In this document: positions 1-57,373 of the stretch, piece by piece | Numbering within the stretch: the stretch's first letter is position 1 | Layout: each line of letters begins with the position of its first letter | Assembly (NCBI GenBank): GCA_964036195.1 | Contig: OZ038450.1 | Coordinates: forward strand, 28,026,794 to 28,090,793 | Direction of reading: 5' to 3' | Origin: Sphaerolaimus hirsutus | Taxonomy: Eukaryota; Nematoda; Chromadorea; Monhysterida; Sphaerolaimidae | DNA: 64,000 nt | Notes under the pieces: generated by a model | Database searches by the model: none | Seen by the model: the letters and a program-made list of their open reading frames with translations, nothing else | What the model was told of the DNA's origin: nothing | Position numbers and translations under genes: made by a program

Positions 1-1190
1 AAAACCGGTTCTATCAAAGCTTTCAACATTTCAGGAGTACTACATCTTCAGAGAGCAGGAACTGTTGGGTGTCTTTGATAATTAGAAAACTGACGAATAG
101 TTGTTTCAAATTTTGTTGATTTTTCGCCACTGAATTTAATTAGTCCACGGCTAGGTATCAATCGGGTTTCGGTATTTTTTGCATTTTGTATTTTTCTCGT
201 TTTGTTGCGTCACGATTGCTCAGTTTTTTTAAAATAGAATTTTGAGAGTTGCTGGATTTTGTCTAGAAAATCTGTGAAGCTTTAGGATGTTTGATTAGGT
301 TGCAAATTTTCATTCCGAATAAACTATGTGTGCGAAATATGCGAAACTATAAATGCGCGAAATCAGAAAAATGGAGTTTGACGCGAATTAAGAAAAAAAT
401 GGCTTCATTCAGATGGAATGGCCCCACACACCCTAGTTGACATCGACACCAAATGTCAACTGGTTCCGTTCCCAATTCAAAGCTTGCGTTTGAACGTCGT
501 TCGTCGGCTCGTCAGCAAGCTTTGTATCGGGAACGACACCAGTTGACATTTGGTGTCGATGTCAATTAGCGTGTGTGGGCCCAATATGGTAGACACTTCA
601 TTGTAGTTTGCCGTCGGTTGACTGCGCATGCCGAACTGAATTAAGCGGAAAAATTGTTAATGTGACCGCAACATCAAAACTTCAGTGTACGGAGCAGACT
701 GAGTAAAATTTGAGTGGGCTAATTTTCATTTTACGTAATTACGTAAGATAAAAAATCAGCGAAAACTGCGGCTACCCTCGCACGAGCATGGTGACTCGAC
801 AATTTCAAATTCACGCTAAACGTTCCGTTTTACAAGACTTTCGAAACGCGTTCATTGCATAATTACGCAGTGCGTCTGCACACATTGAAGTTTGCGCACA
901 GACATTTTAAACAGACATGACCTTTCCCGCGTGCGCCACCGCGATAAAGCCAAAATGGCCCTACGCACAGTACACACCAGTTGACGACGACCAAATGTCA
1001 ACTGGTTCTCATCCCAATTCGAAGCTTGGAGACGAACGACGTTCAAATGCAAAGGTGTTGAATCGTGTTGTGTTGAAAACATTACAGTACGTGCGTAGTG
1101 TTACTCTGCAGCAAGCTTCGAATTGGGATGGGAACCAGTCGACATTCAGTGCCGTTGTCAACTGGTGTGTGCGGGACCAATAGATCACAA
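1..1190. repeat. Region downstream of loqs with two long-inverted-repeat MITEs
   Basis: No coding exon is supported here. The stretch holds two palindromic MITEs, about 420-581 and 958-1178. Each begins and ends near GGCCC..CACAC and carries arms around TTGACATCGACACCAAATG and its complement. The second lies just past the loqs stop codon and may be transcribed in its 3' UTR. The rest is AT-rich sequence in which I see nothing. Further copies of the same family lie near 45962-46134 and 47216-47385. Confidence 0.6.
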
Positions 1191-4100
1191 TCACCCATCC
1201 GCTGACTCGCCCATCGCAATAACATCGCCACTATCCTTGCGATTTTTCGTAGCGGCAAACTTTTGCTGCCGCTGCGAAATATTTTGCGCCGCGCCACCGT
1301 CGATTTTGTGCATCAACTTCAGATAAATTATTGCGTTTTTTGCCGCCTCGTATTTGGCGCCCAGGGAAGAGATTTTATTAGCCCGACACGTTTTTTTGTC
1401 GAGCGGCCCGATTGCAAAAATTGTAAATGACCTGGTGAATAACTAACGTGCCTGAGTAAACACTAGTTTACAGAAATTTCAAAAGTTTCGGAAACAGATT
1501 ATCCAGCTTTGAGTTTATGGAGTACCTATGTCATGACTAGGGTTGGAAAAAACGTTTTTTACGCCACGTTTTTTTTAAAGCTCCCATATATGTTCCTGGG
1601 TCAACATATATAGGTATATCAGACAAGTGACAATACTCTGTGATGTTATACATGACCATATAATGGCTGTGGAGCCATGGGATAGCATAATAAGTGGTGA
1701 TTTGTGTCAAAAATGTCCATGTTTTGTCGACATGTTCATATATCGCCTTATAGTCGAATGTTCGTGACTTCAAGTGGAGTTTGGCACGGAATAGTGATCA
1801 AACAAAGTTATAATAGGAGGTCGTTACTTTGGGAGTGAAGTTACACACTGTGGAGGTACATGGAAGCACATTACCTCAATATTATCTACTACAGCAACAT
1901 GGACGGCTTATTCACCCATGGTAGCACATAGACATGGATGCTTTGATACTAAAAATGCAAAAACGGCAAAAACGTTTCGGACCTCGTGTTTAAAAAAAAC
2001 GTTTAAAAAAAAATCGGCCAACCCTAGTCATGACTGTAGTTGACTGACACTCATTCTGGTAAATTGATATACGTTCAAAGCTGATTTCAGAGTTCTCGCA
2101 AAAAATTAAATTTCGATAACCACTAGTGTAAAGGTGTAGAGCCTTTTATAAACATTTATGAAATATTTGAGAAACCTCATTTTAATCGCTATTGTCGCTA
2201 TTTTAATCGCTTTAACATCATTGTCTGAACCTCATTTTAATTAATAGATATTTTCAGAAACAGTAAAAATGAAATGACGTCCCCACTTCTACATTTATGA
2301 TATAGGTATAAAAGTTGAGTAAAGTGTCATCCAAAAACCTCGCCTGATTTGGAAAATTTGACAGTGTGCTCGAATTGAGTACCACTGTGAGCGAATAAAA
2401 AAAAATTACAGCCCAGGCCTTCATAACAAGCCAATACTGTATCCAAAACTATCGCTGCCCTTTTCAACTTACCTAAATAGTTCATCAAACACAACATTCA
2501 ACATCTCAAATCGGGTCGCCCGACAAAAAAAATATCGGGCAAATTAAATCGCCCACCAGTTCATTGTAGCCCGTGCCGAAACTGACAGCCACGGGGGACG
2601 AGGGCAACTGCACCAGACACTGGTATTTGCCTGCGGATTGAGGGCACTTTGAGATGTTATCAGAGATAACAGAGTTGTTAAAAGTACTGAACTTTTTTCA
2701 AAGTAAACGGAAAGCGGAAAATGGAAAGGGTAAAAAATGCGCTGCCGGAAAACGGAAAATGGAAAGGGTAAAAAATGCGCTGACGGAAAATGGAAAGGGT
2801 AAAACATTTATCGGCCGGAAAACGGAAACGGAAAGGGTAAAAATTTTAATCTGCCAGAAAACAAAAACGGAAAGGGTAAAAAAAATTTATCGGGCAGAAA
2901 ACGGTAAAATGAAACACCGGAAAACGGTAAGCGAAATTTGCACGGAAACATAAAAAGTTAACAAAATTGTGCTAGAAATGGAAAAATTAACATCTGCACA
3001 GACACGTATCCAGCATTTTTGAGCAGGGGGCTGTTTGTTTCCGGAGGCCGGCGAGCGGGGGGGGGGGAGCCTCCCCCCCCCCAAATTTTAAGTATACAGT
3101 GGCGGAATGGCCCCATGACGCTGGCGCCATTAGTAGGCGCAACGCCATGGCGCCATTGGCGTTGGCGCCAGCGCCTTGAAACGCTGTATATGTATGTAAA
3201 TATACATACAAATACAGCAAACAGCACACAATTGAGTATGTTCGTAACGATTTCGGCCACAGGGTGCAAATCTGTAGATAATATTTACATCACGTCTGGT
3301 GAAAAATGCGCGCTAGCGCGCAAAAATTTTTTACGCTGACGTTGAAAAAGTGCCATTTTCCGGTCACTTTTTTGTCTCAGCCTGGGAGGGGGGGGGGGGG
3401 GCTGCCCCTGGATACGGCCCTGCACCTGCATGCAGGTTTGCCTGTTTAGCTATGATTGTGGTAGCTGTATAGTTTTGAATTTTTGATTGTACCAGTGTAC
3501 CTTTACTTGTACTGAGCATCTGAACTGAACCAGAAAAAAACCATTAATGGTCCGTAAAAATGGAAATGGATCTAACCGGAAAACGGGAAAATGGACCGGA
3601 AAAAACAGAAATGGATCTAGCCGGAAAACGGAAAAATGGTCCGGAAAAATGGAAACTGTAACAAATTTTAGCCCACGTAAAAAGGGAAGAGTAAAAAATT
3701 TTCAGCTGCCGGAAAACGGAAAGGGTATAAGTTTTCAGCAGCCAGAAAACGGAAAGGGTAAATTATTCGAAATTATTCATATCACTCGAAATCAGTGACG
3801 CCAAGCACCAATGACGCCATGGCGTGGCGACTACTAATCGCGCCAGCGCCATGGCGCCATTCCGCCACTGTATACGTAAAATTTTAGGGGGGGCTGAGCC
3901 CCCCCCCCCGCTCGCCGGCCTACGTAAACAAACAGCCCCCCCCCCGCTCGAAAATCCTGGATACGTCCCTGCTCGAAATCGATAGCTATCGAAATCTTCG
4001 TTTCCCTTCGCAGTTATATATTTTCTGATCTCCAAAATTACGATCGTTCAAGTGAAAACCCCCCAGTTGAAGGGGAAAGTAGCCAAATAATTTGCCTCGG

Positions 4101-7100
4101 TGTCAACCCCCCACCCTCAATTAGGTTCTCGCCCACAAACCATCTCTGGATATCTGCGGCTCGCCGGGCACATTCTGTATAGGAAAATACTCTGGTTCCC
4201 CGGCGTAGCGCGCGTCGGTCCTGCAAAAATCCAGTAGCAACTGCACACCCCTTGGGCCGGGCTCGCTGGACTCGTTGAAGGTGTGCAGCATGTCGGATAT
4301 ATTTTGGGGGTCCCTTTCGGAATCGTTGACGCGTTTCGTGGATTCTCCAACGATGTCGTTTCTGTGTATTTGGTTTATTGGGGGTTTCGGATGAATAGTT
4401 ATCGGGGACAGTATTTTTTGGGGGAATTTTTTGACATCGAACGTTTTGAAAACGTATTGATTGGCGCAAACAGCCAACCGAATTTGCTCACATAATTCTA
4501 TCGGAGAATTAATTTCGCGCCTGACTTTTTGAGGGGGGGGGGCTATTCAAGAAAGTTAATCATTTAAGGGGCAATTATTGTTCGTCGAAGCATGTTTATA
4601 ACAACTCATTTCATGAACTATGCTTTATAAAAAAATAAATATGCCATTTTTATCCAAATTGGACACAACAAATTTATCAAATGCCTAACGGGGGAATTAT
4701 TCAGGGGGATATTATTTTTACCTCACGGGAGCAAGGGAGCATTTTTTCAAGGGGGAAAATAGTTCGCGGGAATCAAACGATGTCAAATTGACAATGTCTT
4801 TTCAGAAGTAGCGTTGGAGCGATTACGCCGCCCGAAATTGCTCCAAAAAACCATTGCAATTCCAACAGAGAAAATTTACAGTCCCATACAGTTTACCAAC
4901 CCCGTTTTCAGCACCGGGTTTAACGGTGTAAAAAAGCGCATAATCAACAACCCCCAAACCCTAACCCCAGCACAGTGCTATTTTCAACAGCGGCTGCAAG
5001 TTGTTCGTGTCGCTGCTGCGCGGCTGCGGCAAGCTGTTCGTCCAGTTCGGTGTCCACCACGTTGTCGCCGATTTCCGCCTGTAAAATGAGAGGGCGAGGA
5101 CTCCGTGCGCATGTAAACTCGGTGCCCATGTAGACCCGGTGCCCATCTAGCGCTAACCCGGTGCCCACGTAGACTCGGTGCGCATGTAGAGCCCTGGACA
5201 TTACCTGGATACCATAATACCTGGACATTCGGGTATTTATACTTACGTTTACATTTATGTTTCCAAAAATACCATTAGTTTTTTCCTGGCACAACTACCC
5301 GGGTACCAGAGAAAACGTGATCAATAAGTTATTTATGGTCAATATGTAAAAAACGTGTTAACCCACCCTTGGCAAAAATTACTTAAATTTTTCAAAGCAC
5401 TTCTCGAAATTTTTACGTTTACGTTTTCCAAAAATACCAGTATCTTAACGACACTGTATTGTACTCATATGGGTATGGTTGCGCATGTAGACCCAATGCA
5501 TATGAACCCGGTCCCCATGTAGACCTGTGCGCATGTACGCTTGAACAACATGCGCACCGGGTCTACATGGGCACTGGGTAGAAATACATGGGCACCGAGC
5601 CTACATGCGCACCGAGTTTACATGCACACCGGCACAGACCCAATGAGAGTTGGGGGGGGGGGGGTTCAGGGAGTAGTGACTAAACATTTTCATTTAAGCT
5701 AAGCCTCAGAAAAGACAAATAGGTGAATTTTTAGATCTGGACTAGACCCCAGCTTATTAGTGATAATTATGAGTGATAACATTTTTTTGAGGAATTTTCT
5801 TTCATTTATAAGTCCACCGGTTCCTCCGTTTCTTCCCACAATTTCCCTACACTTTTTCTGTCACTTATCAAATTTTAAAACTGTATCCGAAAACTCACTC
5901 TAATCTCAGGATCCATACTTTCCGAGGGGCCAGCGATGAAAGTTTGCCATTCCGCATCTTGCCCAGCCTCCATTTTCGCCTGGGTACTTTCAATGTGAGA
6001 AAGCATGCATTCGGCTGCCAACTTTTTGGCTTGTTTTTTGGTTCGACCCTCGCCTGTTTTTTAAAAAAAGAGTGTTGTTTTAAAAAAATACTTTTTGAGC
6101 AGGTTAAAATCTTGAGGGAAAGGGAATGATTGTGTGGGGAAATGCGGCTGTTTAACGAAACTCATTATCAGGTCAAAGTTATGAACCTTGTCAAGCGATA
6201 AAAAGTGACAAGCGACAAGTGAGGAGTTTTTGTATGAGGAGTTTTTGTATGGGGATTTAGCCATTTCCCTATAAATTTATAACGAGTTTCGGATGGTTAG
6301 TTTTTTCAGTGGAGACATCAAGTTATACGTGAAAAATATGATAGATATTTATGGAGTTATCGAGTTTCGAGTGAAAATTCACCATTTTGATGGTGGAGAT
6401 ATCGAGTTTCGGATGAAATTTTACATTTTTTTTCAAAAATCGGTGTCTCTGTATCTCGGGAATGAGATATTTATGTAAAAAAAATTTTTGAAGAAAAAAG
6501 TATATATATATTTATAAATCAGATATGCACTTAACTCAATTTTTGTCACTTTGGTCGTAATCGAGTTACGGAACCAAACGCCTCAAGTGACAAAGTAATT
6601 GTCACACATAACCTTGTCACCCATCACCAAATCACTTTTCACAGAATCACTTTCCTATTACATAAGTACAACTTTTCTTCTGTCTTCAGAAGTTACTTAC
6701 CAACTTAACTAAGTAACAAACTTCACCTGGCTAACCCCATGTGAAAAATGAAGTTCAGCAAGAATAACAAAATTGATCAAAAATGTGCAAACCTTGTCGC
6801 GTTTGTCTCGTGCCCACGGCTACAGTAACCACGAATACCTTCTCACTTGGCACTCGGCCAGGTTTTTCCTCACAATTATAAGTTGGCGCTGGCAGTCTCA
6901 ATTTTTGACACCTGCGAAGTCAAAACGCGTTTGTACTTTGTATAGATATTACTGTATTTTCGAAAAAGTCGCCGGGGGGGTTATTTTTTCGTCAGAACAT
7001 TTCAAAGGTGGAGTTAATCGATGGGGGGGGGGGGGTAATTCAAGGAGGTAGGGTTGGGAAAAAAACGTTTTTTTTAACTCGATGTTGTTGTTTTTTTAAA

Positions 7101-9531
7101 CGTTTTTTTTTTTTTTAAACGTTGTTTTTTTTTAAAAAAAACGTTTTTTTTAAAAGCTCCCAGATATGACCTAGTGTCAACATATATAGGTATATCAGAC
7201 ACTGGCAATACTCTGTGATGTTAAATATGACCATATAATGGCTGTGGAGCCATGGGATAGCATTATAAGTGGTGATTTGTGTCAAAAATATCCATTTTTC
7301 GTCAACATATCGTTCGTATATCGCCTTATCGTCGAATGTTCAAGACTTCAGGTAAAGTTTGGCACGAAATGGTGATCAAACAAGGTTATAAAAGGAGGTT
7401 GTTACTTTGGGAGTGAAGTTACACACTGTGGAGGTACATGGAAGCACATTACCTCAATATTATATATTACAGCAACATATGTCGGCTTATTCACCCATGG
7501 TAGCACATAGAAATGGATGTTTTGATACTAAAAATGCAACAAAACCAATGAAAACAACCACCAATGTCAATTTGTGTGTGAAATTGCGCGCTTGCGTGCA
7601 AAAATTTTGCAAAATACCCAGTGCTTAGTACTAAAAATTTCGGCCGATGTTTTTTTTTTAAAAAAAACATTTCGGACGTCATGTTTTTTTAAAAAAAAAC
7701 GTTTTTTTTATTTAAAAAAAACGTTTAAAAAAAAACATCGGCCAACCCTAGGAGGGGGAGTTGTTTTTTTAGTAGAATATTCAGTACATAAGTACGTACG
7801 TCGCCGCTGTAGGTAAAGCATTCTTTTGTGTTTACGTTGCACACGCTGCACTGCATTTGCATTAGATGAATCAGAGACCATGGCTTTTGGGGTCTGCCTG
7901 GCTTCATCGAAATGTTTTTTTTAATGTGACATGACTTGTTTGCATCGAGGATAGTGGGGTTTTTCGAGGGGGAGTGGTATTTTCTCCTCACGCTAGCAAG
8001 AAGGGGGGAGTTATTACAGGGGGACTTATTCGAGGATTTACGGCAGTTACATTTCTACTCAACTAATTAACCGTGTGTATTTCTTGGTGGGTACCATTTC
8101 ATTCGAATGCACACTAAATCACACATTAATTCAATATTTGAAAAAATAATTAAAAACCCACTTCAAATTCAGTTTGCTGACAGGTTCATTTCCGCCACCC
8201 GCAGATGTTGATGCATCGTTATCTCCCTGATTTATAGAAACACTTGCGAGCGCCTCAGATAATTCGGGCATATTTTCCACCAATTGCTGTCTGTGTAAAA
8301 TCATAGATGCGTAGATGTTTGTGTGGAGATTCGAAGAGGGGAGTAGATGACATTTTTCGCAGAATTTTTTGTAGATGTTGAGATGAAATTTTTTGGATAG
8401 ACAGTAAAAAATCAAATCATCGAAACCAAAATCTTTACGCCGCCGACAAAAGTGCATTAGAACAAATTGTCATTTGTCAATATTGTTGCGAATGAATTTG
8501 ATCAATGGTGTGTACGGCACAAACAGAGCATACGTTTTTATCCCAAACGGACTTTATACATTGTAAATTCCATCGATTTTACGACCCTAAATATTATCAC
8601 CCCAAAAACAGTCCAAACACACCCCACCGATTTTTTAGCCCTTCACATAATCATCCCCAAAACACCCCCCCCCCCCAACCCACAACCAAACCACCGCGCC
8701 CTCCCTATCCTCCACGGGCATGCGCCACTCCCCCCACTCGCCCCTGTCCACGACCTTCTGCATGACTCTGTAGGCGGCGATGTGCTTTGCGAGCTTCTTG
8801 TTGCGGCCGTGGCCGAGCGTCTCGTACACGCCGTTGTTCGAACCGTACACGGTGCACCGGTAGGCGAATTGCATCCGGGCTAGCTGGGGGGGGGGGGGTG
8901 TTTTTTATAACTTTTTATTGGGGGTGGTTGAAAAAAGGTTGTTTTTATGGGAGGGAGGAATTGAAGCGTGAGAATAAGAGTCACAGTTGATTATAGGAAG
9001 TATATTTTCTTTAACATTTATGTGTGTAATATTTTTATTTTTAAAATAACTTTTTTAAAGTATTTATTCTATACTTGTCACTCTCTATGGTTAAAAAATC
9101 AATTTTCTAGTTGCTTAAAATCAAATCCAGAGAAAACTAAATTTTCAAATCAATGATTTACCTATTATGAGTGGTGATTTAAACCCAAAAATTATATCGC
9201 CTCATTTCTATATCCACCTTCAACAAACGTTCTTGCCCTCAACAAGTTCAATTAGAAGTAGAATGCTGCTTTAAAAAGACTTAAAGTAAACGTTCACTTA
9301 ATCACAGTCATGTTTCGTGCTTCAGAAGCATGTTTCTTTAAAACTCTAAAAACATTTTGGCACAATTCCAAAACTCACTGTGCTCGCATCGGAACGAATT
9401 AATTGGTAGTCGGGCTGCGGCAATCCAAGTCGAGTGCATGATTCACTTAAAAATTGTATTGGCGTTTTTACTGGGACCAATGAGGGGTCAGATTCGGAAG
9501 CTGACGCCTGCGCTGGCGCACTTTCCGGCAT
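1191..9531 (-). CDS. loqs: Loquacious/TARBP2/PRKRA-type triple dsRNA-binding protein (9 exons)
   Basis: Probable Dicer-partner protein of small-RNA biogenesis, cytoplasmic. Exons (5' to 3'): 9379-9531, 8755-8883, 8162-8286, 6793-6911, 5899-6053, 4952-5078, 4141-4344, 2557-2630, 1191-1361; phases agree and give about 418 residues. dsRBD1 spans exons 1-2 (TPIQFLSESCTRLGLPQP, then FAYRCTVYG and NKKLAKHIAAYRVM). dsRBD2 spans exons 3-5 (EPVSKLNLK, TKKQAKKLAAECML). dsRBD3 spans exons 7-9 (LLLDFCRTDARYAGEPEY, KYQCLVQLPSSPVAVS, then YEAAKNAIIYLKLM), the non-canonical protein-binding type of Loqs and TARBP2. The exon 6/7 junction is the least certain: a donor at 4951 or 4973 is possible. Intron 8 has a GT donor but no AG acceptor, and its ends are transposon inverted repeats. 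Loqs, TARBP2 and PRKRA cannot be told apart without a tree. Confidence 0.87.
1362..2556 (-). mobile_element. Transposon-derived intron (introner-like) = loqs intron 8
   Basis: On the minus strand the intron opens GTGGGCGATTTAATTTGCCC and its other end, reverse-complemented, reads GGGAAGAGATTTTATTAGCCC. The match continues into a GTCGGGC..GCCCGA block, giving inverted ends of about 50 bp. The ends lie at the coding junction, with a 4-bp direct repeat CTGG on both sides. Removing it joins TGYNEL to GAKYEAAK in frame, restoring dsRBD3. No AG exists between an in-frame TAA and the coding restart, so the 3' splice site cannot be canonical. A 489-bp hAT-like element (1538-2026) is nested inside. 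ATPAF2 intron 2 carries the same family. Confidence 0.75.
1538..2026. mobile_element. hAT-like element, AACGTTTT-armed family (copy 1)
   Basis: Starts TAGGGTTGG and ends CCAACCCTA, flanked by a perfect 8-bp duplication GTCATGAC (1530-1537 and 2027-2034). Both arms are poly-T or poly-A runs broken by AACGTT. The interior is about 300 bp, non-coding, and nearly identical to that of the copy at 7049-7750. Non-autonomous. Confidence 0.88.
2690..3770. mobile_element. TTTCCG-armed element remnant, split by a hAT-like copy
   Basis: Two blocks of GGAAAACGGAAAGGGTAAAA-type repeats (about 2700-2960 and 3540-3770) surround an interior shared with the intact copy at 49566-50009 (GCAGGTTTGCCTG, then a GTAGCTGTA stretch). 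The left side begins near 2664 with AGAGTTGTTAAAAGTAC, the terminus of a different family (compare 10013), not with TAGGGTGTC. The right end is not recognisable. Interrupted by 2999-3422. Confidence 0.65.
2999..3422. mobile_element. hAT-like MITE, CAGGGACGTATCCAGG family
   Basis: Begins CAGACACGTATCCAG and ends CTGGATACGGCCCTG. Flanked by the near-identical 8-mers CATCTGCA and CACCTGCA (7/8). It contains G-rich and C-rich blocks next to the ends, a GGCGCC-rich segment and the palindrome TGCGCGCTAGCGCGCA at 3307-3322. Non-coding. Confidence 0.8.
3793..3971. mobile_element. Short CAGGGACGTATCCAGG-family deletion copy
   Basis: A 179-bp copy starting CAGTGACG and ending GGATACGTCCCTG, with a perfect 8-bp duplication CTCGAAAT on both sides (3785-3792, 3972-3979). 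The left arm was lost by internal deletion, but the right G/C-rich arm and the GGCGCC block remain. Confidence 0.8.
5097..5645. repeat. Inverted array of GGTGCCCATGTAGACCC-type units
   Basis: About four units of GGTGCCCATGTAGACCC run in one direction at 5097-5200. Their complements run back at about 5465-5640. Between them is an AT-rich stretch with ACGTTTACATTTATG-like repeats. Related units occur at 50655-50725 and 60960-61025. The ends look like those of a non-autonomous DNA element but I cannot fix a target duplication. It lies in loqs intron 5, upstream of exon 6 on the minus strand. Confidence 0.5.
6962..8035. mobile_element. CCGTAAATCCTCGAA-family MITE split by a hAT-like copy
   Basis: The left part (about 6962-7048) is a degenerate end with GGGGGGTTATTTTTTCGTC. 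The right part (7751-8035) ends GGGACTTATTCGAGGATTTACGG. The family resembles the TA-flanked MITEs at 15664 and 37905 but with AAATCC in place of ATTTCC. Split by the element at 7049-7750. Confidence 0.55.
7049..7750. mobile_element. hAT-like element, AACGTTTT-armed family (copy 2)
   Basis: Starts TAGGGTTGGG, ends CCAACCCTA, with long T/A arms interrupted by AACGTT. It is longer than copy 1 and keeps a segment with the palindrome TTGCGCGCTTGCGTGCAA (7584-7601). The target duplication is obscured because it landed in a G-rich stretch of another MITE. Confidence 0.75.
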
Positions 9532-9756: not shown

Positions 9757-10004
9757 CAGTGATGTAAAATCGCAATGGCGCTAGCGCCAAAGCAAAAAGC
9801 GCCATGGCGTTTTTGGCGCTTGGCGCTATCACGCTGTGGCGCCATTGGCGCTCGGCCCCGTGCCTATGAAAGGCGCCATGGCGCTTGGCGCTATATTTGC
9901 CGGGGGCCAGCAACAAAGTGCCTGACGCTGGCGCTGGGGGCTGAAGTCCGGAAAAGCGCCATGGCGCGCTTGGCACCAAAGTTCTGTCGCTTCTTACATA
10001 ACCA
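9757..10004. mobile_element. hAT-like element, GGCGCC-armed family
   Basis: Starts CAGTGATGTAAAATCGC and is filled with GGCGCC/CATGGCGC units. The right end is eroded (TTACATAACCA). The 8-mer CTTAGGAG flanks both sides (9749-9756, 10005-10012). The same 8-mer also flanks the next element, so two elements used one target site. Confidence 0.75.
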
Positions 10005-29400: not shown

Positions 29401-32400
29401 TTAATTCTGCTGGGCAGCTTGATCTTTCTCCGCCCCCGATGCGGAATCTGCCTGTCGCATGACATCGGGCAGGGGGGGCGGAGCCGAGAGCGCCTCGATG
29501 CTGATTGGCTCCCAGTCGCCCGTGGATTCTGTTTGAGAGGGGGGGTGTTTGAGGGTGAGGGGTTGAGAAACTTGATGTTGAACAGAATATTTCATATTTG
29601 ATCGAAATCAATGAAATTTGGGTGGAAATCGATCGTCGTTTACAGTTGGTGGGCGTGTCTACCTTCCTAATAGAATGTGGGACCAATTCGGCATGTGGAG
29701 CAGTGAAAATTTAGAAGTGGGAATTCAAATTTAATAGAAAAGTAAACTTCTAGTAAAGCGGCGTTTACACTGCATTTTGTGCCGACAAAAAAAAGAAGAC
29801 AAAAAGTTTCATAATTCCACAATAAAGTTCCATATCCGCAAGACAAAGCAGTGAAGTATACTCACTAGTTGAGTGTACACACATGCCAATTTGCAGATAA
29901 TTCGGGCATGTCGTTCACGACTTAAAAACAAATTACATTTGTCGGTTCGGTTTTCGTTTTGAAACCGAACCGACAAGTGTAATTTGCTTTTAACTCTTGA
30001 ACGACACACGCAAATTATCTGCAAATTGGCATGTGTGTACACTTAACTAGTGAGTATACTTCAGTGCCTTACCTTGCATATATGGAACTTTATTCCGGAA
30101 TTATGGAACTTTTTCACTCGTTTTTTTTTTGTCAGCACACGAAACCGTGTAAACGCCGCTTAAAGAAACGTAAGTTCTTATTTCACACTTCTAAAATTTA
30201 CATTTATTTTAAGCTGTCACTTCTCATTTCACTTCTAAATTTTCGTCTCTATCAGACTTTTTAGTTCTCAGCTTGCAGAATTGACCCGAGATAAGCGGGT
30301 CAGACATTCCCAAAAAATTCCCCAAACCGGATCGGGTAGCGTATGAGAACTTGTCGTTCAGTCCAAGCTACCCAAGCGATTTGACACACGTCCAAGTCCA
30401 AGCGATGTTTCTTCAATTTTGTGCTCTGAATCGTTCAAATGTGCTCCATTTTGCCAATTTTCACGTTTATAATCGCTATTTTCGATGTATACGTGGTTAT
30501 GTACCTATTTTACTCTGGTATTTTACACCAAATTCAAATTCTATGTTTATGTATTTAGGTATTTAATGTCAAAAAGTTGGCAAGCTGCCAAGTTCCATAC
30601 GGGGACTCTTCCCCCAAACCTACCATCCCTGAACCTCAAGGCGATCATTTGAGGCGTCTGCGCTTTCGCATTCTGCGCACCGAATCCAGCCTCAGTCAAT
30701 GTCTTATCATCATCCAAAGGCTCCCAATTTTGATTGCCAGGGCCGGATTTCTGAGCGGCAGTCTCATTTGTTCCCGAAGGGGCGGAGCGTTGCACGCACA
30801 GCTGCTGATTGGGTGGAGGCACCTGGGGGGTTGGGGGGTGGGGGTGGGGTTGGTAACTATTGAAAGGGGGTAAATGACGGGATATGGTCGTTAACTGTTG
30901 GGATTGTGGATGGAAAGGTGTTTTTGGCGGTTTTTGAGAGAAAAAAACAAACAACGTTTTTAAATAAAACTGTTTGAAAGCTCCCTAAAAAGCCGGAATT
31001 ACAGGTCAGCGGCGTTTGACGTGAAATGATGACGTCGTAAAATTGATTACATCAAAATAGACATAGGTACAGCGTTGAAATTTCAGAATTTGATAGTTCT
31101 AGTAATTGTGTGTGATGTCCTAAAAAAAAGAAAATAATTATTACGTCAAAATTTACACATTCTACGTCAACATTTCACGTCAAACATTATACGTCACCAA
31201 AAAATTTTGACGTTAAATTAATAACTACTTGAATAATGATTATTTGATAAAAATTTTTGGGACATTACACACAATTAGTAGAACTATCTAATTCTGAAAT
31301 TTCAATGCTGTACCTTTGTCTATTTTGATGTAATCAATTTTACGACGTCATCATTTCACGTCAAACGCCGCTGAGCTGTAATTCCGGCTTTATGGTTACG
31401 AATTGACACATGCAGGTAGGGTGGCAGACGGTACGGGCTTGCGGTAAACCGTACGGTACGGTAAATTTTCCATTTTGCGGTAAACGGTACGGTACGGTAA
31501 ATCTTCAATTTTGCAGTAAACGGTACGGTACGGTAAATCTGAAAAGTGCGGTACGCGGTACGGTACGGTAAATTCCCGATGTCCGAAATTGCAAAAAGTA
31601 GGTGGTATTTTGGTAACTTGTAGGGTGTCAAATTTCCGTTTCCATTTTCCGTTTCCGCCTTTCCGCAGGAAAATTTTTTACCTTTCCGTTTTCCGGCAGC
31701 CGAAAAAATTTTACCTTTCCGTTTTCCGTTTTCCGGCAGCTGAAAATTTTTTACCTTTCCGTTTTCCGTTTTCCGGCAGCTGAAAATTTTTTACCTTTCC
31801 GTTTCCGTTTTTCCGGCCCATTTTTCCGTTTTCCGGCTGAAAAATTTTTACCTTTCCGTTTCCGTTTTACCAGGCCATTTTTCCATTTTCTGGCTCGATT
31901 TTCAGTTTTCTGGCATTTTTCCATTGTTTTTCCAATCTGTATTTATCTTCAATTGGCTCATCCCATTGTGTTGTTTTTGTCTCTTGGAGCAGCATTGACA
32001 ACTGGGATTTCAGGGTCAGTGAAACAGGTGCTGTGAACCCAATTGGGTCATATGCTGACACCAATAATTTATTCAAGTTTCATCTGGTTGGTGTTGTGAT
32101 GCTGTCAATTTGCAATTTTGGTGTTGATATTGCCAGCATGTCCGTTCGGTGATTTTATTTCATGCCCATTACTGCGACAATTTTATTCACCTTTGGACTC
32201 CTGTCATTTTCTGCTATTTCATTCATGACTGATCTGGAGTTTGACAGCCATTCCCTCATGTTCATAGAACATTGGTTAAATAAAGCTTTGACTTTGTAAT
32301 ATAGTTCTAAAGCTTCAACTTCATTCGTGACACTCATGATGAAGTTATCGATGTAAATGTTGTTTATTATCATCGCCAACTGGTTTCGTTCCCCTTCATT

Positions 32401-42300: not shown

Positions 42301-44147
42301 CCTTTTTCCCGCCCCGGGAAACCATTTCAAAGTCGGGTAGCCCTGCACTTCGAAGCGCTTGCCGAGTTCGGATTCTTCAGTTGCGTCCACCTGAAATTTG
42401 TTGGGGCGTGAAATTTAGTTTCGGTTTTATAAACGGTTTTTCGGGATCGGGACCGGTTATGGAAAAGCGTCATGGCACTTTTGGCGCTAGGTGTTATTTT
42501 TCATGGCCCCAGGAGCAATATGCTCGGCGCAAGCGTTAGTGCAAAAGCAAAGTACCATGGCGCTTGGCGTCATTTTCTTCTGGCCCTATTGGCGCTTGGC
42601 GCTGAGTTTCAGAAAAGCGCCACGTCCTGGCGCTTTTCCATCAGTAATAGGTACTGAGTAATCCCGACATTTGTCGGGATTCGGGATCCATTTTGAAACC
42701 CTAACTCGGGCCCTGTAAAATGGCATGTGAACACAAAACATACTAGATAATATTTGTCATGTAAAATTGACGGTGTGATGTAAATACCTAATGGGATAAA
42801 TTCTACCGGTGACATTACTTTTTAACTGACACCTAATGTTTTATTCTGATATTTGACACAGTGTGGCGTTTTACATGGCACAAAACCGAACTTCAGAATC
42901 TAAAAGGAGGCGAGTATTACCATCAAACAGAGCCCCCCCACTCAAGAGTAAAAGTGATGAATACAAACTTAGATTTTGGTGATCAGAAAATATACAAACT
43001 TTGTAGAAACTGCACTGGGTGATAACGACCATTTTTCATCTGAAAAAAGAAAAAGAAAAAACTAATGCACTACATTAAAGATGGCGGAAGTTTTATTTAA
43101 AGCAAGCATCAAAGCCTGTTTTTTTTAAACGGCAGCCAAATTTTTTTGTACTTATGCACCACCAGGTATTTTTGCAAAAAATTAGCGCACAACTTCACAT
43201 GGAAATTGGCATTGATGGTCAAGTTTCATATGTTTTGTATAAATTTCAACTCAACAGTCAACACATGTTATTTCTACATGACAGCATAAATGGTGTCAAG
43301 TGGCCATTTTGGCATGCTGCCATGTTATAAAATTCTATGCTATGTTATACTGGGATGGGAGGTTTTTAATATAAAAGCCATGTTCACGTCATCTAACTTA
43401 TCACTCACAACTTAAAACTCATAACGTTCACTCATTTGCCCACTTAAGAAAATACGACCGGCTACAACCAACACTTTACCCCACTTTTCCCTCGAAATAT
43501 CCCCCCACCAAAAAAATATCAAACCTTAGCGAGCGCAACATTCTGCTTGTGTTCCTTCATAGTCCTGGCGGCTGCGCCATATTCAGGGGCCAAATTTTTG
43601 CAATGTCCACACCAAGGCGCGTAAAATTCCACCAGCACGTTTTCCTGGGGGCACTCCCAGACCCTGCAAAATGCCCTGTAAAGTGTCAAGTGCCATGCAA
43701 ATGTCTAAAGTCATGTAAAATGCCCTGGAAATTGGCTAATGTCAGGCAGTGTCAAAAGTCGTGTGTTTAAAATGCCCTGCAAAATGACAACGGATTTGCC
43801 ATTTTGCTGGGTATTTCAAATACCTACATGACTTTTGACACTGCCTGACATTGGGAATTTTCCACAGAATTTTACATGACTTTTGACACTTTGCATGACA
43901 GTTAACATTTTACAGGACATTCAACAGGGTCTGGGAATGGCACCTGCTTCTCCAAGAAATCGTCAAAATCATTCTCGTGGAGAATGTAGACGCCGTCGGA
44001 GTCTGTTGACACCTCATTCGTTCCGGAATTTCCGGAATCTGGTTTTTCAGATGCTCCTGAACACTGATTGGACAGGAGAAGTGATAGAAGGGGGAATAAT
44101 ACGAGGTAGGGTGACATTTTTGATAGGCTTTTTAAGGTAGATAGCAA
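36336..44147 (-). CDS. PDIA4: Protein disulfide-isomerase A4 (ERp72), 13 exons
   Basis: ER-lumen oxidoreductase and chaperone. Exons: 43944-44147, 43525-43644, 42205-42390, 41675-41819, 41027-41167, 40580-40652, 39739-39973, 39223-39376, 39046-39155, 38455-38599, 37403-37557, 37226-37342, 36336-36482; phases match throughout and give 643 residues. A signal peptide ([15 protein letters not shown] from the second Met at 44117) is followed by an acidic linker. There are three active thioredoxin domains, each with [10 protein letters not shown] (exons 2, 4, 11), as in ERp72. The inactive b and b' domains are in exons 6-10 ([33 protein letters not shown]). The C-terminus is KEEL, an ER-retrieval signal. 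Intron 1 (43645-43943) is exactly one transposon. Introns 6 and 10 contain TA-flanked MITEs. Confidence 0.96.
36531..36762. mobile_element. Long-inverted-repeat MITE, CCTACACACACTAGTTTTCAC family
   Basis: TGCCTACACACACTAGTTTT at the left faces GACTAGTGTGTGTAGGGC at the right, both next to CATTG. A copy with the same orientation of CATTG lies at 29067-29312. It lies in PDIA4 intron 12. Confidence 0.72.
37905..38313. mobile_element. TA-flanked MITE, CCGTATTACCTCGAA subfamily
   Basis: TA-CCGTATTACCTCGAAATACC and AATTCGAGGTAATACGG-TA ends; interior with TACATGATGTGCATCATT. A copy in opposite orientation lies at 62907-63325. It lies in PDIA4 intron 10. Confidence 0.85.
40140..40541. mobile_element. 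TA-flanked MITE, CCGTATTTCTTCGAA subfamily
   Basis: TA-CCGTATTTCTTCGAAATAC and TTAGAGGAAATACGG-TA ends, interior with GCAGAACACACGTTAGAAAC. It lies in PDIA4 intron 6. Confidence 0.82.
42455..42652. mobile_element. GGCGCC-armed element, eroded
   Basis: Left GGAAAAGCGTCATGGC and right TGGCGCTTTTCCATCAGTA with GGCGC-type units between. Both terminal TAGTGATGs are damaged. It lies in PDIA4 intron 2, upstream of exon 3. Confidence 0.6.
43645..43943 (-). mobile_element. Transposon-derived intron (introner-like) = PDIA4 intron 1
   Basis: On the minus strand the intron runs from GTGCCATTCCCAGACCCTG to GGTCTGGGAGTGCCCCCAG. These are inverted repeats (CATTCCCAGACCCTG against CACTCCCAGACCCTG), so the GT and AG splice sites lie at the transposon ends. 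A direct CAGG occurs at both junctions. Removing the 299 bp joins DFLEKQ to [10 protein letters not shown] in frame. Interior repeats of TGTCAAAAGTCATGTAAAAT also pair across the middle. Related copies: 47905-48117 and 53663-53829. Confidence 0.82.
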
Positions 44148-52300: not shown

Positions 52301-54592
52301 ATACGTCCCTGTGCGTGATGGGTTTACATGCGTAATCAGGGACGTAGCCAGGATTTTTGAGCGGGGGGGCGGATTGTATACGGAGCCAGGCGAACGGGGG
52401 GGGGGCGGCGCCCCCCCCCCCTCAAATTTTACCCCTGTAGTAGAGGAATGGCGCCATGGCGCTGGCGCCATTCGTAGGCGCCACGCCATGGCGCCACTGG
52501 CGTTGGCATTGGCGCCAAAGCAGCAGTATACGTCTGTATTTTACAGGCATATAGTGCGACATGGATTGTAATTGAGTCCATTTTCACTGGCTTTGAGGCC
52601 GCGGAGAACGGTCAGCCAAAAATATATGTTGTGAAGTGAACATGCGCGCTCGCGCGCAAATTTTTTTCAAACTGTCGACAAAATCGTCCTCTGAAAGTGC
52701 CATTTCTGGCACATTTTTTGGTCCGGCCGGGGAAGGGGGGGGGCGGCTGCCCCCCCCGCTCCCCCCCTGGCTACGTCCTTGTGCGTAATAGACCTGATTC
52801 CTTTAGAAGGCCATGTAAAATTCGTCCAAATTTTACGCTATTTTCAGATACTTTACATGTAACAGAGTGCGGGAATGGCGCCCTCAAAAACACATGCCCA
52901 CCCCAAACAAACGCAAAACCAATTGATCAGTGGGCACGCATTCTAGCCTCAATTCATCCTCAGCCCAAGCCAAAATCCTGCCCCAATGGAGCTGCTGTTC
53001 CAATCGGAGCGCTTCCAGATCGCTCGGAGATTGCGCAGTTGACGGAGAGTTCTCCACCGAGTTCGCGGAGTAACCATTGCTGCGGTAGTAGAGTATGGTG
53101 TCCCCCTATGGGGGGTGTAGATTTATTTTTTGTGGAACCCCTGTGAGGTTCAATTGATGGGAATACTCAGAAGCAACCCACTAGAATAGACAGAGGAGTC
53201 TAAATCAAGGAAAATCAAAGGAAAATAAAAATACATAAAAAATCTACAAATGTTCTATTTTCTTTTAAATATCCTTTGTATTAATTAATATTGTTTTGTT
53301 TGAATATGAAATTTGGAATATTTAACTGTTTCATCATTCTACAGTGTGCGGAAGTTGTTGTAGCTTGCGGAACCGCTAAAACTTTCCCAAATTCAAAGTT
53401 CACCCGATCTCACCACCAATAATTCATCGACAATCACGTCAACCATTTTGGCAACGTTACTTTTCAGTGGATTATCCGTCGAAGTCATAGCCAAACCGCT
53501 CAAATGCATCCTGCTTGCATCAATCGGGGACGAAATTTAAATAGCCCGATGCATTTTTCGGGCAGCCCGACAAATTGTTTTGTATCCGAGATTTTGCGTT
53601 CCCGATATTTTGTCGAATTGGGGACTTTAGCACGGGGATTCATTCTACTTCACTTGTCCACTCGCTAGGTGGCAGTCCCGCACCCTGTAAGGAGTCTTGT
53701 CGTGTAAAGTGTTCATGCAAAGAATCAATCGAAAATAAAACGACTTTGTTACTTAACATTTCACATTTTTAATGACACTTGACACGTTACTTTGCACTTT
53801 ACACGGTGCGGGACTGCCCCCAGATATCCTCAATCGAAGTACTCAGATGTCTCAATTTCACAAAACCTCTCTCTCAATCAATCAAATTGATAAAAAGTGT
53901 CGGGCAGCCCGAAAAAAATGTGCCCGCCTATTTAAATTTAGCACCTGGTCACTTTTTAATTGCGCACGCCACTCTTCAGCAACTGCCAGGGCCAAAGTTC
54001 GATTTGGGAGGTGTAGAACGTTTTTTCCGGGCGTGCGCAGCGTCCGACCGTCCAAAGTGATCGTGTAGGCGGAGTTTGACTGAAAAGTTTCCAGTTTCCG
54101 GGAAAAAAAAGTTCCTGTAAATTTAAACGAAGGCAAAATGAAAATTTGGGAAACTGAATGTTGTTCCAGGATGTTTAACACAGTTACAGACTTGCACTAG
54201 TGCGAAAAAGGAATAAAGTATTCAGAATATCCTTCATGCCGCGTACGGTGCTGTCATATCAACTTGTCAAATGTTGTTCAGTCACATTGAGCAATTGACA
54301 AATTACAGGCTGTGCGACTGGCTCCAGGGTCAAAGTACGCTACAAACTGTCAATAAAACTTATTTTCAAAACATTTGACAATTGACAAATCGCAGGACGC
54401 CCCCGACAAGACGATAAAGCCAAACAATGCATCACGACAACTTTGTACAGCACTAATCAAGACACTTAACCCAACCTGGACCACATCAACTTGTTCATAA
54501 AATCTCCTGGCGCCCTTTGGCGCTGCCATGGCGCTCGCCCATCGCTTGCCCACAGTAAATGGCGCGGAAATGACCAAACGCAGCCGACCCAT
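49312..54592 (-). CDS. ATPAF2: ATP synthase assembly factor 2 (ATP12; 6 exons)
   Basis: Mitochondrial chaperone for the F1 alpha subunit. Exons 54476-54592, 53945-54079, 53414-53524, 52913-53105, 50309-50460 and 49312-49509 give 301 residues (human 289). Recognised: a basic presequence then ARRFYEQVDVV; YTITLDGRTLRTPGKNVLHL; LALAVAEEWRAQLKS; MHLSGLAMTSTDNP; DTILYYRSNGY; LHWGRILAWAEDE; LGWWPVNGIKYAAEAVNS; WGTVEWAHKVSDADSAVRLA. The last exon may instead splice after LSMEK; the stop used here is the first in frame. Intron 2 has a GT donor but no usable AG acceptor: the start of exon 3 at 53524 (IDASRMHL) is placed by family homology. Intron 4 (50461-52912) holds three intact hAT-like elements. 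Confidence 0.88.
49566..50009. mobile_element. hAT-like element, TTTCCG-armed family, intact copy
   Basis: Starts TAGGGTGTCAAAAAAATTT and ends AATTTGACACCCTA, with a perfect 8-bp duplication ATCGGGAC (49558-49565, 50010-50017). The arms are GGAAAACGGAAAGGTAAAAA units. The short core has GCAGGTTTGCCTG, GTAGCTGTACATTCTGCAAC and TTCACTTGTAGTTC. 444 bp, non-coding. It lies in ATPAF2 intron 5. Confidence 0.92.
50655..50986. repeat. CATGTAGACCCATCACG repeats and the left half of a hAT-like element
   Basis: Three units of CATGTAGACCCATCACG-type sequence (50655-50725) are followed by CAGGGGCGTATCCAGG (50727). This is the left end of a CAGGGACGTATCCAGG element whose body ends at GAGGCGCCTAC, where the next element landed. 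Its right half beyond 51845 is reduced to GAATGGCGCC. Confidence 0.6.
50987..51837. mobile_element. hAT-like element, CAGGGACGTACGCAGG variant, with a 370-bp palindrome
   Basis: Starts CAGGGACGTACGCAGG and ends CCTGCGTACGTCCTTG. Perfect 8-bp duplication GCGCCTAC (50979-50986, 51838-51845). Palindrome TGCGCGCTTGCGCGCA at 51297-51312. At 851 bp it is twice the length of its relatives, because it contains the large palindrome 51384-51753. Confidence 0.92.
51384..51753. repeat. 370-bp near-perfect palindrome
   Basis: Two arms of about 185 bp are complements around a centre near 51568. The outer end CTGATACGCACACGTGCCCG faces CGGGCACGTGTGCGTATCAG. Within each arm, CAAGTGATTTTCAGATATGA occurs with its complement, so the unit is repeated four times in alternating orientation. 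Confidence 0.85.
51868..52311. mobile_element. hAT-like MITE, CAAGGACGTATCCAGG family
   Basis: Starts CAAGGACGTATCCAGG and ends CCTGGATACGTCCCTG. Perfect 8-bp duplication TGCGTGAT (51860-51867, 52312-52319). Palindrome TGCGCGCAAGCGCGCA at 51990-52005. 444 bp. Confidence 0.93.
52337..52781. mobile_element. hAT-like MITE, CAGGGACGTAGCCAGG family
   Basis: Starts CAGGGACGTAGCCAGG and ends CCTGGCTACGTCCTTG. Perfect 8-bp duplication TGCGTAAT (52329-52336, 52782-52789). Palindrome TGCGCGCTCGCGCGCA at 52643-52658. Opposite in orientation to the preceding copy. Confidence 0.93.
53525..53944 (-). mobile_element. Transposon-derived intron (introner-like) = ATPAF2 intron 2
   Basis: On the minus strand it starts GTGCTAAATTTAAATAGGCG and its other end reverse-complements to CGGGGACGAAATTTAAATAG. 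The inverted match runs on through TTTTTCGGGC(T/A)GCCCGAC, about 45 bp in all. These are the same ends as loqs intron 8. Removing it joins LKSDQ to IDASRMHL in frame, as in other ATP12 proteins. The 3' end is ..CCCCG, not AG, and a TAA lies in frame just upstream. A GGCAGTCCC-family element (53663-53829) is nested inside. Confidence 0.72.
53663..53829. mobile_element. GGCAGTCCC-family element nested in ATPAF2 intron 2
   Basis: Left GGTGGCAGTCCCGCACCCTG, right GGTGCGGGACTGCCCCCAG. Inside are GTAAAGTG and CACTTTAC inverted units. The same family forms PDIA4 intron 1. Confidence 0.78.
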
Positions 54593-55459: not shown

Positions 55460-57373
55460 CCGTATTTCCTCGAATTACCCCCCGGGGTTTTATTTTTTCA
55501 AAGTGAAAATTTTGAGAGAAAAACCTGAAAAATGCAACAATAACCACTATTAATATGTTTTTACAGCCTTATATAAGGATGTAGATGGTATAAACGATGT
55601 TTTTTCAATTCAATTCAACTTTATTACCGCTCTGCCGGCGCGCGTCAAAAAGGTAATACCAAAAAAGAGTAAGCCACTAACGCGTAGAACGAAGTAACTT
55701 AGCACCAAAAAAGTCAAGCGTCGAAATGCGAAGCGTATCGGAAAAATATAACAAATATGTTTCAACATGAATTGCGATGGGGACAATAGCTCACGTTTTA
55801 ATAAGTGACCCCTTAATCCCCCTAATAAAATCACATAACATGTACTCATAACGATACAAAGGCCATAACATTGTTTACTCAGAGAAATTCACATTTGTCA
55901 TACACATATTATCATTGAGATCGCAAGTAGAATCAGTGTATCAAGTGCTGCGAGAAAGTGTCTCTATGCCCCTCTTTCATTCAAACTCTGCACGCTCAGT
56001 GCCTTAATGGGGTTATGAATTTTGTTAGTAATTTTGTCATATAAAAATTTACTTACATTAGGTTAAAACTTCCTTAGCAACCCCTAAGCTATTGTCGGAG
56101 ACGGCGTATGTGGATGCTGCTGTTTCGCAAAGTCGTCTAGGTATTCCTTGAATTCACACAGCGATTTGCTCACTGTCGCTCGAGTAAACTGACAGACAGA
56201 TGATGATAGAGTTGAGCTTAAGTTTTCTCTAGCGTGATCTCTACACTTGTTTTCACAGCAATCCGCCTTAAGTGAGCCTAATAACCGCTGTCTCCAAATC
56301 AAAGTCGAGTCGTGTGGGCAATTTTCGAGGATGTGTTTGTTTGTTAGCCAAAGGTCCACACCTCTGCTGTTGCAGAGGGGGCATGACATCCAACACATAG
56401 CACCCCGTTTTAGAGCAATTTGATCCAGTTTTGACAGAACGCCGTGTCGGAATAGAAACCATTCGATTTCTTTCACTGACAGTGTGTCCGGGCAGATCGG
56501 TGAGATGTGGTCGTAACACTCTCTCTCGTGCTGCCGTGAGCTTTTCCCGCTTGTCGCTCGACTAGATAGACATTCCCACGCTGCATATTTTGCTGTATCC
56601 TTAATTATGTTTTTTGTTACGATCGTTTCCGCCGATTTGTCCTTGAAAAGCCAGTTCTGCGCCTCATGCGCCCGTCCGGAGATGCTGTTTTTCCGATTTT
56701 GACCATTTCTTGTTTTACCCCAAACTTGTGCCACTAACCTCGTTGTAGATGAGATTTTTCCGCTTCTTACATATCTATCCATTTCCATTACTTTTACTGC
56801 AAACCAACCTCGCATTGTTATCATGTCTGCTTCTATGGCTAGCATTCTGTTTGTCAGACCTCTTGGAGCCCCGATCATTATCCGATATATCGAGAGCTCA
56901 ACGGACACTAGCTTATCCTGTGCAGATTTGTTCAGCCCTACAATCTCCACGCCGTAATATACCTTTGAAACTGCATAGAGAGTCCACATGCGTTTTACCG
57001 CCCATAGTGGTCGCATGCTGTGGCAGGCAATTTCGTTGATCAATATGCGCGCCCCATAAGCCCATTCTATATAGAGTCGTTTCTGTTTGTCGAAAGGGTC
57101 TTTGGAGCTGGTAAGAGTTAGTCCTAGATATTTTGTCTCGTCCACCTCTATGACTCTTTGTAAGTTCTTGTGCATATCATATCCTAATTCCCAAATGTTT
57201 TCCTTGTCAGCTTTTTGTCTGAAGTGTAAAACATGACTTTTTGATCTAACGTAACACAGTGTTTTGAACGTCTGTTATGCATTTCCCGGACCACAAATTC
57301 ATAGTGCCCATTTTGAGGGGGGGTATTTCGAGGGGGGTATTTCGAGGGAGGGGGGTATTTCAAGGAAATACGG
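55460..57373. mobile_element. TA-flanked MITE split by a LINE fragment
   Basis: Left TA-CCGTATTTCCTCGAATTACC, right GGTATTTCAAGGAAATACGG-TA. The MITE interior GTATAAACGATGTT is cut and resumes near 57250 with CTAACGTAACACAGTG; the uncut version is seen at 46460-46490. Confidence 0.8.
55602..57249 (-). mobile_element. 5'-truncated non-LTR retrotransposon (LINE) fragment
   Basis: The minus-strand reading frame 56084-57175 encodes 363 residues. It starts after the reverse-transcriptase catalytic core, with the post-RT motif ETKYLGLTLTSSKDPFD and the thumb-like region VKRMWTLYAVSKVYYGVEI. It ends with a CX2C..H..C knuckle (CPLCNSRGVDLW, HILENC). No intact RT or endonuclease is present, as expected for 5' truncation. 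The 3' end carries AATAAAGTTGAATTGAATTG, a short tandem tail typical of some LINE clades. The target duplication is not clear. The clade was not determined. Confidence 0.8.

What the first reader, a model, noticed from the sequence alone, without database searches (positions are those of the whole stretch)
1362..2556. A host intron (loqs intron 8) that is a transposon and lacks an AG acceptor
The coding sequence stops at GAACTG and resumes at GGCGCC, with inverted repeats of about 50 bp at both junctions and a CTGG direct repeat. The donor is GT inside the element end. Upstream of the resumed frame there is an in-frame TAA about 20 bases away and no AG in between, so the 3' splice site must be non-canonical (TG by placement, with 4-base ambiguity). 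The joined protein is a textbook third dsRBD, so the gene appears functional.
Basis: partly seen in the sequence, partly recalled or inferred. Interest (0 to 1): 0.9.

Follow-up and report, generated by a model that had tools for sequence, protein, structure and literature searches.

The report
Transposon introns breaking the splice-signal rule
In what appears to be an animal genome, a family of small mobile DNA elements sits inside protein-coding genes and appears to be cut out of the messenger RNA as introns exactly at the element's ends, even where the usual GT or AG splice letters are missing.

Summary
In detail: intron 8 of a loqs/TARBP2-like gene (window 1362-2556, minus strand) is a terminal-inverted-repeat element that starts GT and ends TG, with no AG in its last 40 bases. 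One stated detail is wrong: no in-frame TAA lies about 20 bases upstream; the frame is open for 27 codons. An in-frame AG 15 bases downstream was missed; using it deletes five residues of the third dsRBD.

The case is not isolated. The same family interrupts ATPAF2 in the window (GT..CG). A genome search gave 18 more copies; 11 were analysed, four with tool-supported homology. With loqs and ATPAF2, five of six break GT-AG: loqs and an S1-domain gene GT..TG, ATPAF2 GT..CG, AHCYL and a receptor guanylyl cyclase GG..AG; SLC4 is GT..AG. Excision at the element edges keeps conserved domains continuous, and AHCYL has no in-frame, stop-free GT-AG pair in the range scanned.

The duplicated target is a CNG triplet, resembling NuwaI transposons. 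I read it as an introner family: the element supplies the donor, the triplet the acceptor, removed by a tolerant spliceosome, perhaps with hairpin help. No RNA was seen.

The parts
1362..2556 (-). loqs/TARBP2-like intron 8: family-1 TIR element plus one copy of its target triplet; GT..TG
2557..2630 (-). loqs exon 8 (KYQCLVQL..GTGYNEL), ends with target triplet CTG at 2557-2559
1191..1361 (-). loqs exon 9 (GAKYEAAKNAIIYLKLM.. to stop)
2509..2550 (-). 5' terminal inverted repeat of the loqs element
1371..1413 (-). 3' terminal inverted repeat of the loqs element
1362..1364 (-). second copy of target triplet (CTG on gene strand) that forms the non-AG acceptor
1347..1361 (-). the 15 nt that a canonical GAG acceptor would remove (GAKYE)
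1530..2034 (.). unrelated MITE (..CTAGGGTTGG/CCAACCCTAG..) nested in the loqs element; 39 other genome places among the 40 scored, up to 95% identical
53525..53944 (-). second family-1 element, in ATPAF2/ATP12 gene: CAG|GTGCTA..GTCCCCG|ATT, GT..CG
53945..54079 (-). ATPAF2 exon before the element (ends ..EWRAQLKSDQ)
53417..53524 (-). ATPAF2 exon after the element (IDASRMHLSGLAMTSTDNP..)
53661..53831 (.). family-2 element nested inside the ATPAF2 element
43645..43943 (-). intron 1 of a PDIA4-like gene: family-2 TIR element, CAG triplet on both sides, canonical GT..CAG

Best explanation
A non-autonomous cut-and-paste element (TIRs, 3-bp CNG target duplication, NuwaI/PHIS-like) inserted into the last dsRBD coding region of loqs and became intron 8. 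Its 5' end supplies the donor GT directly after the duplicated triplet, and the second triplet copy serves as acceptor. A CAG target gives a canonical intron; a CTG target, as here, gives GT..TG. The transcript is cut at the element's edges and the dsRBD is restored. Most likely the ordinary (U2) spliceosome does this, tolerating a non-AG 3' end (or, in sister copies, a GG donor), helped by the TIR hairpin that brings both ends together and by a fairly conserved AT-rich then pyrimidine-rich 3' terminus. SHOWN by sequence: the element, TIRs, triplet duplication, frame, domain continuity and recurrence in other genes. INFERRED: that the RNA is spliced, where exactly, and by which machinery.
For: TIRs above null; 12 arms from 6 pairs in 264 kb align, each flanked by a CNG triplet. 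Joins: loqs gap-free; ATPAF2, a four-exon model scores 90.3 bits over the whole ATP12 profile, against 49.6 for the exon before the element alone (the gain is not from the join only); AHCYL 79 of 79 residues gap-free with 3gvp, 110.7 bits; guanylyl cyclase KLWTAPELLR unbroken across the join (Pfam kinase below its cut-off); S1 domain 24.8 bits, cut-off 22; SLC4 87.9 bits. Of these six copies five are not GT-AG (three of the four found by the genome search). AHCYL has 0 of 26 in-frame GT/AG pairs free of stops in the range scanned. The other 29 of 31 introns that I modelled in five window genes have a GT-AG solution. A family-2 element with the same kind of target shows intron gain: two paralogues carry it, a third has the empty site with one CAG. 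For the spliceosome: among query-matched arms GT occurs in 4 of 4 gene-5' ends and 0 of 7 gene-3' ends, p=0.003 (but six of the eleven strands rest on open frames that I judged after seeing the ends, L035 on recall). The loqs exons are intact although the element holds another MITE and its arms are only 84% alike.
Against: No RNA evidence. loqs and the S1 gene each have a GT-AG alternative 15 nt further on, in frame (the shorter S1 version was not scored). The ATPAF2 join leaves two residues more than bacterial ATP12. Open-frame length alone does not separate these joins from random joins (12 to 31% of random joins are as open for the six supported copies). Restricted to the four homology-supported query-arm copies, the GT asymmetry is only 2 of 2 against 0 of 2. 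Borders of ordinary introns were placed by eye looking for GT-AG. Strong pairing of intron ends is not unique to TIR introns: loqs intron 2, with C/G-rich ends, reaches -40.6 kcal/mol.
Confidence: 0.6

Rival explanations
1. Hairpin-guided, spliceosome-independent removal like SOS splicing: the TIRs pair in the RNA, an endonuclease cuts at the base of the hairpin and RTCB joins the ends, so terminal letters do not matter.
For: In the 31 window introns that I modelled, the only two without a GT-AG solution are TIR elements (Fisher p=0.002); both donor and acceptor letters vary while the cut tracks the TIR edge; predicted pairing of intron ends is -51.7 and -61.9 kcal/mol for the two family-1 introns of the window. 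A review describes SOS splicing as excision of transposable elements followed by RTCB ligation (passages).
Against: GT is enriched at gene-5' ends (with the caveats given), which SOS would not need. SOS splicing as I recall it is imprecise, whereas a host gene needs an exact join. The primary paper was not held.
Confidence: 0.2
2. Ordinary GT-AG splicing of loqs: donor at 2556, acceptor GAG at 1347, making a dsRBD3 five residues shorter (GAKYE lost).
For: It is in frame with no stop, and the first AG downstream of the likely branch region is the textbook choice. The S1-domain copy has the same option at +15.
Against: Loqs alignment falls from 28.7 to 20.0 bits and the TARBP2 rows vanish; the two weak Pfam matches disappear. 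No comparable option in AHCYL, and only options changing 13 or more residues in ATPAF2 and guanylyl cyclase.
Confidence: 0.13
3. The element is a disabling insertion (or one allele) and the gene is not functional.
For: No transcript seen; the unspliced reading stops after 16 codons of element.
Against: Element with diverged arms and a nested MITE, yet intact exons on both sides; the same pattern in ATPAF2, AHCYL, S1-domain gene, guanylyl cyclase and SLC4.
Confidence: 0.04
4. The elements are removed from DNA in some cells (programmed elimination), not from RNA.
For: Exact excision at a duplicated triplet would also fit a domesticated transposase (inference only).
Against: The assembly, presumably mostly somatic DNA, contains them; GT bias at gene-5' ends.
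Confidence: 0.03

Closest known systems
Introners (DNA-transposon-derived introns; Gozashti et al. 2022, PMC9860276, passages read)
   Same: Non-autonomous elements, many with TIRs and target duplications, that become introns; reported from copepods to protists
   Different: From recall, introner introns are mostly canonical; here 5 of 6 homology-supported family-1 copies are not GT-AG
Amoebophrya introner elements (PMC7789003, passages read)
   Same: Introns with inverted repeats near both ends, direct repeats of 3-5 nt over the borders, variable terminal letters, proposed hairpin
   Different: A dinoflagellate with more than 60% non-canonical introns; here apparently an animal whose other modelled introns fit GT-AG, target restricted to CNG
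Fritillaria non-canonical U2 introns (PMC13326754, abstract, sections 4 and 21 and passages read)
   Same: Animal, non-AG 3' ends; [quoted passage not shown]
   Different: There only 5% of mapped introns are canonical, with AG..AC and AG..AT commonest and YAY triplets; here CTG/CCG acceptors and GG donors seen only in one element family
SOS splicing (review PMC13247085, passages read; primary paper not held)
   Same: DNA transposon excised from animal mRNA
   Different: Described as a defence against transposons; here diverged insertions sit in conserved genes as apparent fixed introns
NuwaI group of PHIS transposons (PMC4482050, passages read)
   Same: CWG target duplications, mainly in animals
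   Different: No transposase was sought here, so the likeness is by target triplet only

Membership tests
Introner | Multiple related copies occupying introns of unrelated genes | tested here: met
   loqs, ATPAF2, AHCYL, guanylyl cyclase, S1-domain gene, SLC4
Introner | Intron borders coincide with element borders and target duplication | tested here: met
   with borders inferred from protein homology; empty paralogous site shown only for family 2
Introner | Spliced from mature RNA | not testable with these tools
   no RNA data
NuwaI (PHIS) | 3-bp CWG target duplication | tested here: inconclusive
   Family 1 in 264 kb: 3 of 6 pairs match exactly (all CWG), 3 differ at the middle base
NuwaI (PHIS) | PHIS DDE transposase in an autonomous relative | not tested
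   no transposase search was made
SOS-splicing substrate | Inverted repeats able to pair in RNA | tested here: met
   (loqs 0 of 600, ATPAF2 2 of 600 mixed pairs as strong)
SOS-splicing substrate | RTCB-dependent, spliceosome-independent joining | not testable with these tools
   needs experiment
Canonical U2 GT-AG intron | GT donor and AG acceptor at the domain-preserving join | tested here: not met
   loqs GT..TG; next AG costs five residues of the dsRBD

The most novel reading that the evidence does not exclude
An animal genome carries fixed introns whose boundaries are set by a transposon's paired terminal repeats and target triplet rather than by GT and AG: a hairpin-defined intron class inside conserved genes, possibly made by a domesticated SOS-type pathway, with later mutations turning some copies into ordinary GT-AG introns.
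Probability: 0.22. Interest if true: 0.93.

Novelty: new variant of a known kind. Interest (0 to 1): 0.74.

Why it matters
It would give a natural series of transposon-born introns, from GT..TG, GT..CG and GG..AG to GT..AG, in an apparent animal whose other introns look ordinary. That makes two open questions testable: how a fresh DNA insertion is tolerated before splice sites mature, and whether animal cells can remove inverted-repeat inserts from mRNA without standard splice signals.

Tried and rejected
Rejected: an in-frame TAA near the acceptor (one search shows none). Rejected as proof: long open frames across the joins; random joined flanks of this genome are often as open, so copies without tool-supported homology (L035, L037, L039, L042, L044, L045, L046 and the vault-protein copy) are not counted in the five of six. 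Led nowhere: first genome search with the whole element matched, besides itself, only the region of the nested MITE; search with the ATPAF2 element matched, besides itself, only its nested family-2 piece; the AHCYL arm gave one further copy, not fetched. The protein search with the loqs model gave one hit without an organism. The organism was not identified; a COX1 search did not complete. A pattern census of 3' ends did not complete. Rows dropped before counts: of 18 fetched copies, L032, L033, L034 and L048 had no convincing second arm, L036 has an eroded end, L041 has no CNG triplet at its right end, L043 is a near-identical second copy of the L037 locus. Four ordinary introns (pdi_i2, i3, i9, utp_i2) were not placed by script and were read by eye; the ends of several gene models were left out.

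Full report
WHAT IS THERE. The window lies in a 348-Mb assembly (G000, C1:28026794-28090793); gene content suggests an animal, but the organism was not identified. On its minus strand a gene with nine exons (9531 to 1191) encodes a loqs/TARBP2-like protein; introns 1-7 have GT-AG solutions. Intron 8 (2556-1362, 1195 bp) has inverted arms of about 43 nt (36 identities), scoring 49 when the best of 702 mixed pairings of intron ends scores 36. It begins GT, ends TG, and has no AG in its last 40 bases. Joined, the protein aligns without a gap to Drosophila Loqs dsRBD3 (28.7 bits).

The frame upstream of the resumed exon is open for 27 codons; no in-frame TAA lies 20 bases away. GT-AG alternatives keep the frame: an AG at +15, which deletes GAKYE, and one at -81, which adds 27 residues; others lose 15 or more. 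The five-residue-shorter version scores 20.0 bits against Loqs and loses the TARBP2 rows and two weak Pfam matches that were below their cut-offs anyway. It is therefore less likely, not impossible.

A FAMILY, NOT A SINGLE CASE. Arm comparison and then a profile of four arms gave a second pair in the ATPAF2 gene of the window (53525-53944; Pfam ATP12). A four-exon model scores 90.3 bits against ATP12, the exon before the element alone 49.6; the join leaves two more residues than bacterial ATP12. Its borders are CAG|GT..CCCCG|ATT. In the next 200 kb four more pairs appear, plus a degenerate one in the window. Twelve arms of six pairs align and each abuts a CNG triplet; read on one strand, the two triplets are CAG/CAG in three pairs and differ only in the middle base in three. 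One copy (101.2-101.7 kb) interrupts what I recognise from recall as the major vault protein gene, in a stretch that I do not recall from other species; its edges would be GA..TG.

GENOME COPIES. The loqs 5' arm found 18 other copies (19 candidates, all scored). I fetched 2 kb around each and analysed 11 of 18. Four of the 11 have tool-supported homology across the join: L047 AHCYL (79 of 79 residues gap-free with 3gvp, 110.7 bits), L040 receptor guanylyl cyclase (KLWTAPELLR, natriuretic peptide receptor, E 0.00019; Pfam kinase below cut-off), L031 S1 domain (24.8 bits, cut-off 22), L038 SLC4 (87.9 bits). L035 resembles a two-pore potassium channel from recall only; of the ten joined peptides scanned, five had no Pfam match at E 0.1 and one a weak one. 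Borders on the gene strand: AHCYL CAG|GGATGG..CAG|, GG..AG; guanylyl cyclase CCG|GGACGG..CAG|, GG..AG; S1 GT..TG; SLC4 GT..AG; L035 GT..AG. With loqs and ATPAF2 that makes five of six tool-supported copies non-canonical, three of four if only the search-found copies are counted.

ALTERNATIVES SCANNED. For the five non-canonical copies I listed every in-frame GT/AG pair with GT from -36 to +120 and AG from -120 to +36. AHCYL: 26 pairs, none free of stops. ATPAF2: 11 pairs, 3 free of stops, the best deleting 13 residues including EW. Guanylyl cyclase: 16 pairs, 6 free of stops, the best deleting 13 residues. loqs: 25 pairs, 7 free of stops; S1: 18 pairs, 10 free of stops; in both the best deletes five residues. 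So at least AHCYL cannot be explained by a nearby canonical pair.

CONTRAST WITH ORDINARY INTRONS. Of 31 introns modelled in five genes of the window (loqs, ATPAF2, PDIA4-like, UTP25, MRPS21) 29 have a GT-AG solution; the two exceptions are the two family-1 elements. I placed these borders by eye looking for GT-AG, so this shows that such a solution exists, not that it is used.

A SECOND FAMILY SHOWS HOW IT STARTS. Intron 1 of the PDIA4-like gene is a different TIR element with CAG on both sides (arm score 56) and the join is gap-free with PDIA4 (3idv). Family 2 is more common. At 155 and 200 kb two paralogous genes carry it between ..RCCTDP and STHI..; the paralogue near 138.8 kb reads through with a single CAG, over some 23 bases of shared upstream sequence. 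That is an empty site: insertion duplicates CAG, and removal of element plus one triplet restores the frame. Two other paralogues (119 and 127 kb) have the same type of insert with a CTG edge; their upstream exon differs by five bases, four of them silent by my reading of the alignment, but an in-frame AG nine bases upstream leaves their acceptor open.

MECHANISM. In family 1 the element start is GT in 9 of 14 placed copies, GG in 4 and GA in 1, so triplet plus element start often makes a donor such as CTG|GTG or CAG|GTG, and the second triplet is the acceptor: CAG gives AG, CTG gives TG. The 3' termini resemble GGGCAAATTAAATYYC..CC before the triplet, with room for a branch point (inference). 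Arms pair strongly in RNA (loqs 0 of 600, ATPAF2 2 of 600 mixed pairs as strong; loqs intron 2, without TIRs, 10 of 600). Query-matched arms at gene-5' ends are GT in 4 of 4 and at gene-3' ends in 0 of 7 (p=0.003); that points to U1-type recognition, but six of the eleven strands rest on open frames judged by me after seeing the ends, which one search shows to be weak evidence (other frames are open too), and L035 on recall; in the four supported copies it is 2 of 2 against 0 of 2. Five of the 14 copies have CTG at the 5' and CAG at the 3' triplet (L035, L037, L038, L039, L045), as expected if acceptors mature to AG, but the overall excess of CAG at 3' triplets (9 of 14 against 5 of 14) is not significant, and two copies go the other way (ATPAF2 CAG to CCG, vault-protein copy CAG to CTG).

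COMPARISON. This works like an introner; family, borders and duplication are met as far as sequence can tell, RNA removal is not testable here. The target triplet resembles NuwaI (passages of PMC4482050), but no transposase was sought. Amoebophrya introners have inverted and direct repeats and variable ends (passages of PMC7789003); in Fritillaria only 5% of mapped introns are canonical (abstract, sections 4 and 21 and passages of PMC13326754). Introners in general: passages of PMC9860276. SOS splicing is known to me from a review's passages and recall. On print: of 234 papers holding two of the terms introner, Nuwa, PIF-Harbinger, Harbinger, CWG, none of the ten listed holds introner at all; one search listed 12 of 317, among them the Fritillaria paper as the only animal case of this sort that I recognised; searches listed no such case by title and abstract. 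These are limited searches of one library.

VERDICT. Real and more general than the finding states; not yet proven at RNA level.

Noticed in passing
window 419-1179: Nested fold-back repeat (ACACACCAGTTGAC.. arms) just downstream of the loqs stop codon; similar-looking arms at 29.1, 36.5 and 44.8-47.8 kb.
   Followed up: no
window 5100-5629: Inverted pair of repeated short units (GCCCATGTAGAC-like) inside loqs intron 5.
   Followed up: no
window 7047-7750: Second window copy of the MITE nested in the loqs element, inside loqs intron 3; 39 places besides the window's loqs copy matched among the 40 candidates scored of 3547.
   Followed up: partly
window 32155-32847 and 56084-57274: BEL/Pao-like reverse transcriptase and peptidase fragment (weak Pfam matches), and a long open frame that looks LINE-like by eye.
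   Followed up: no
101840-102060 in window coordinates continued to the right (L013): Directly after the family-1 copy in the vault-protein-like gene, another GTGCCAATTCCCC.. insert with an inverted end separates two arginine/serine-rich coding-like stretches.
   Followed up: partly
family-1 pairs at 53.5, 101.2 and 104.9 kb: The two target triplets of one insertion differ only in the middle base in three of six pairs; whether that exceeds ordinary decay was not tested.
   Followed up: partly
loqs 1347-1361 and L031 exon after the element: Two GT..TG introns are followed by GGCGCC and an in-frame GAG ending at exactly +15.
   Followed up: partly
window 2715-2930 and 9780-9980: Arrays of GGAAAACGGAAAGGGTAAAA-like and GGCGCCATGGCGCC-like repeats.
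   Followed up: no
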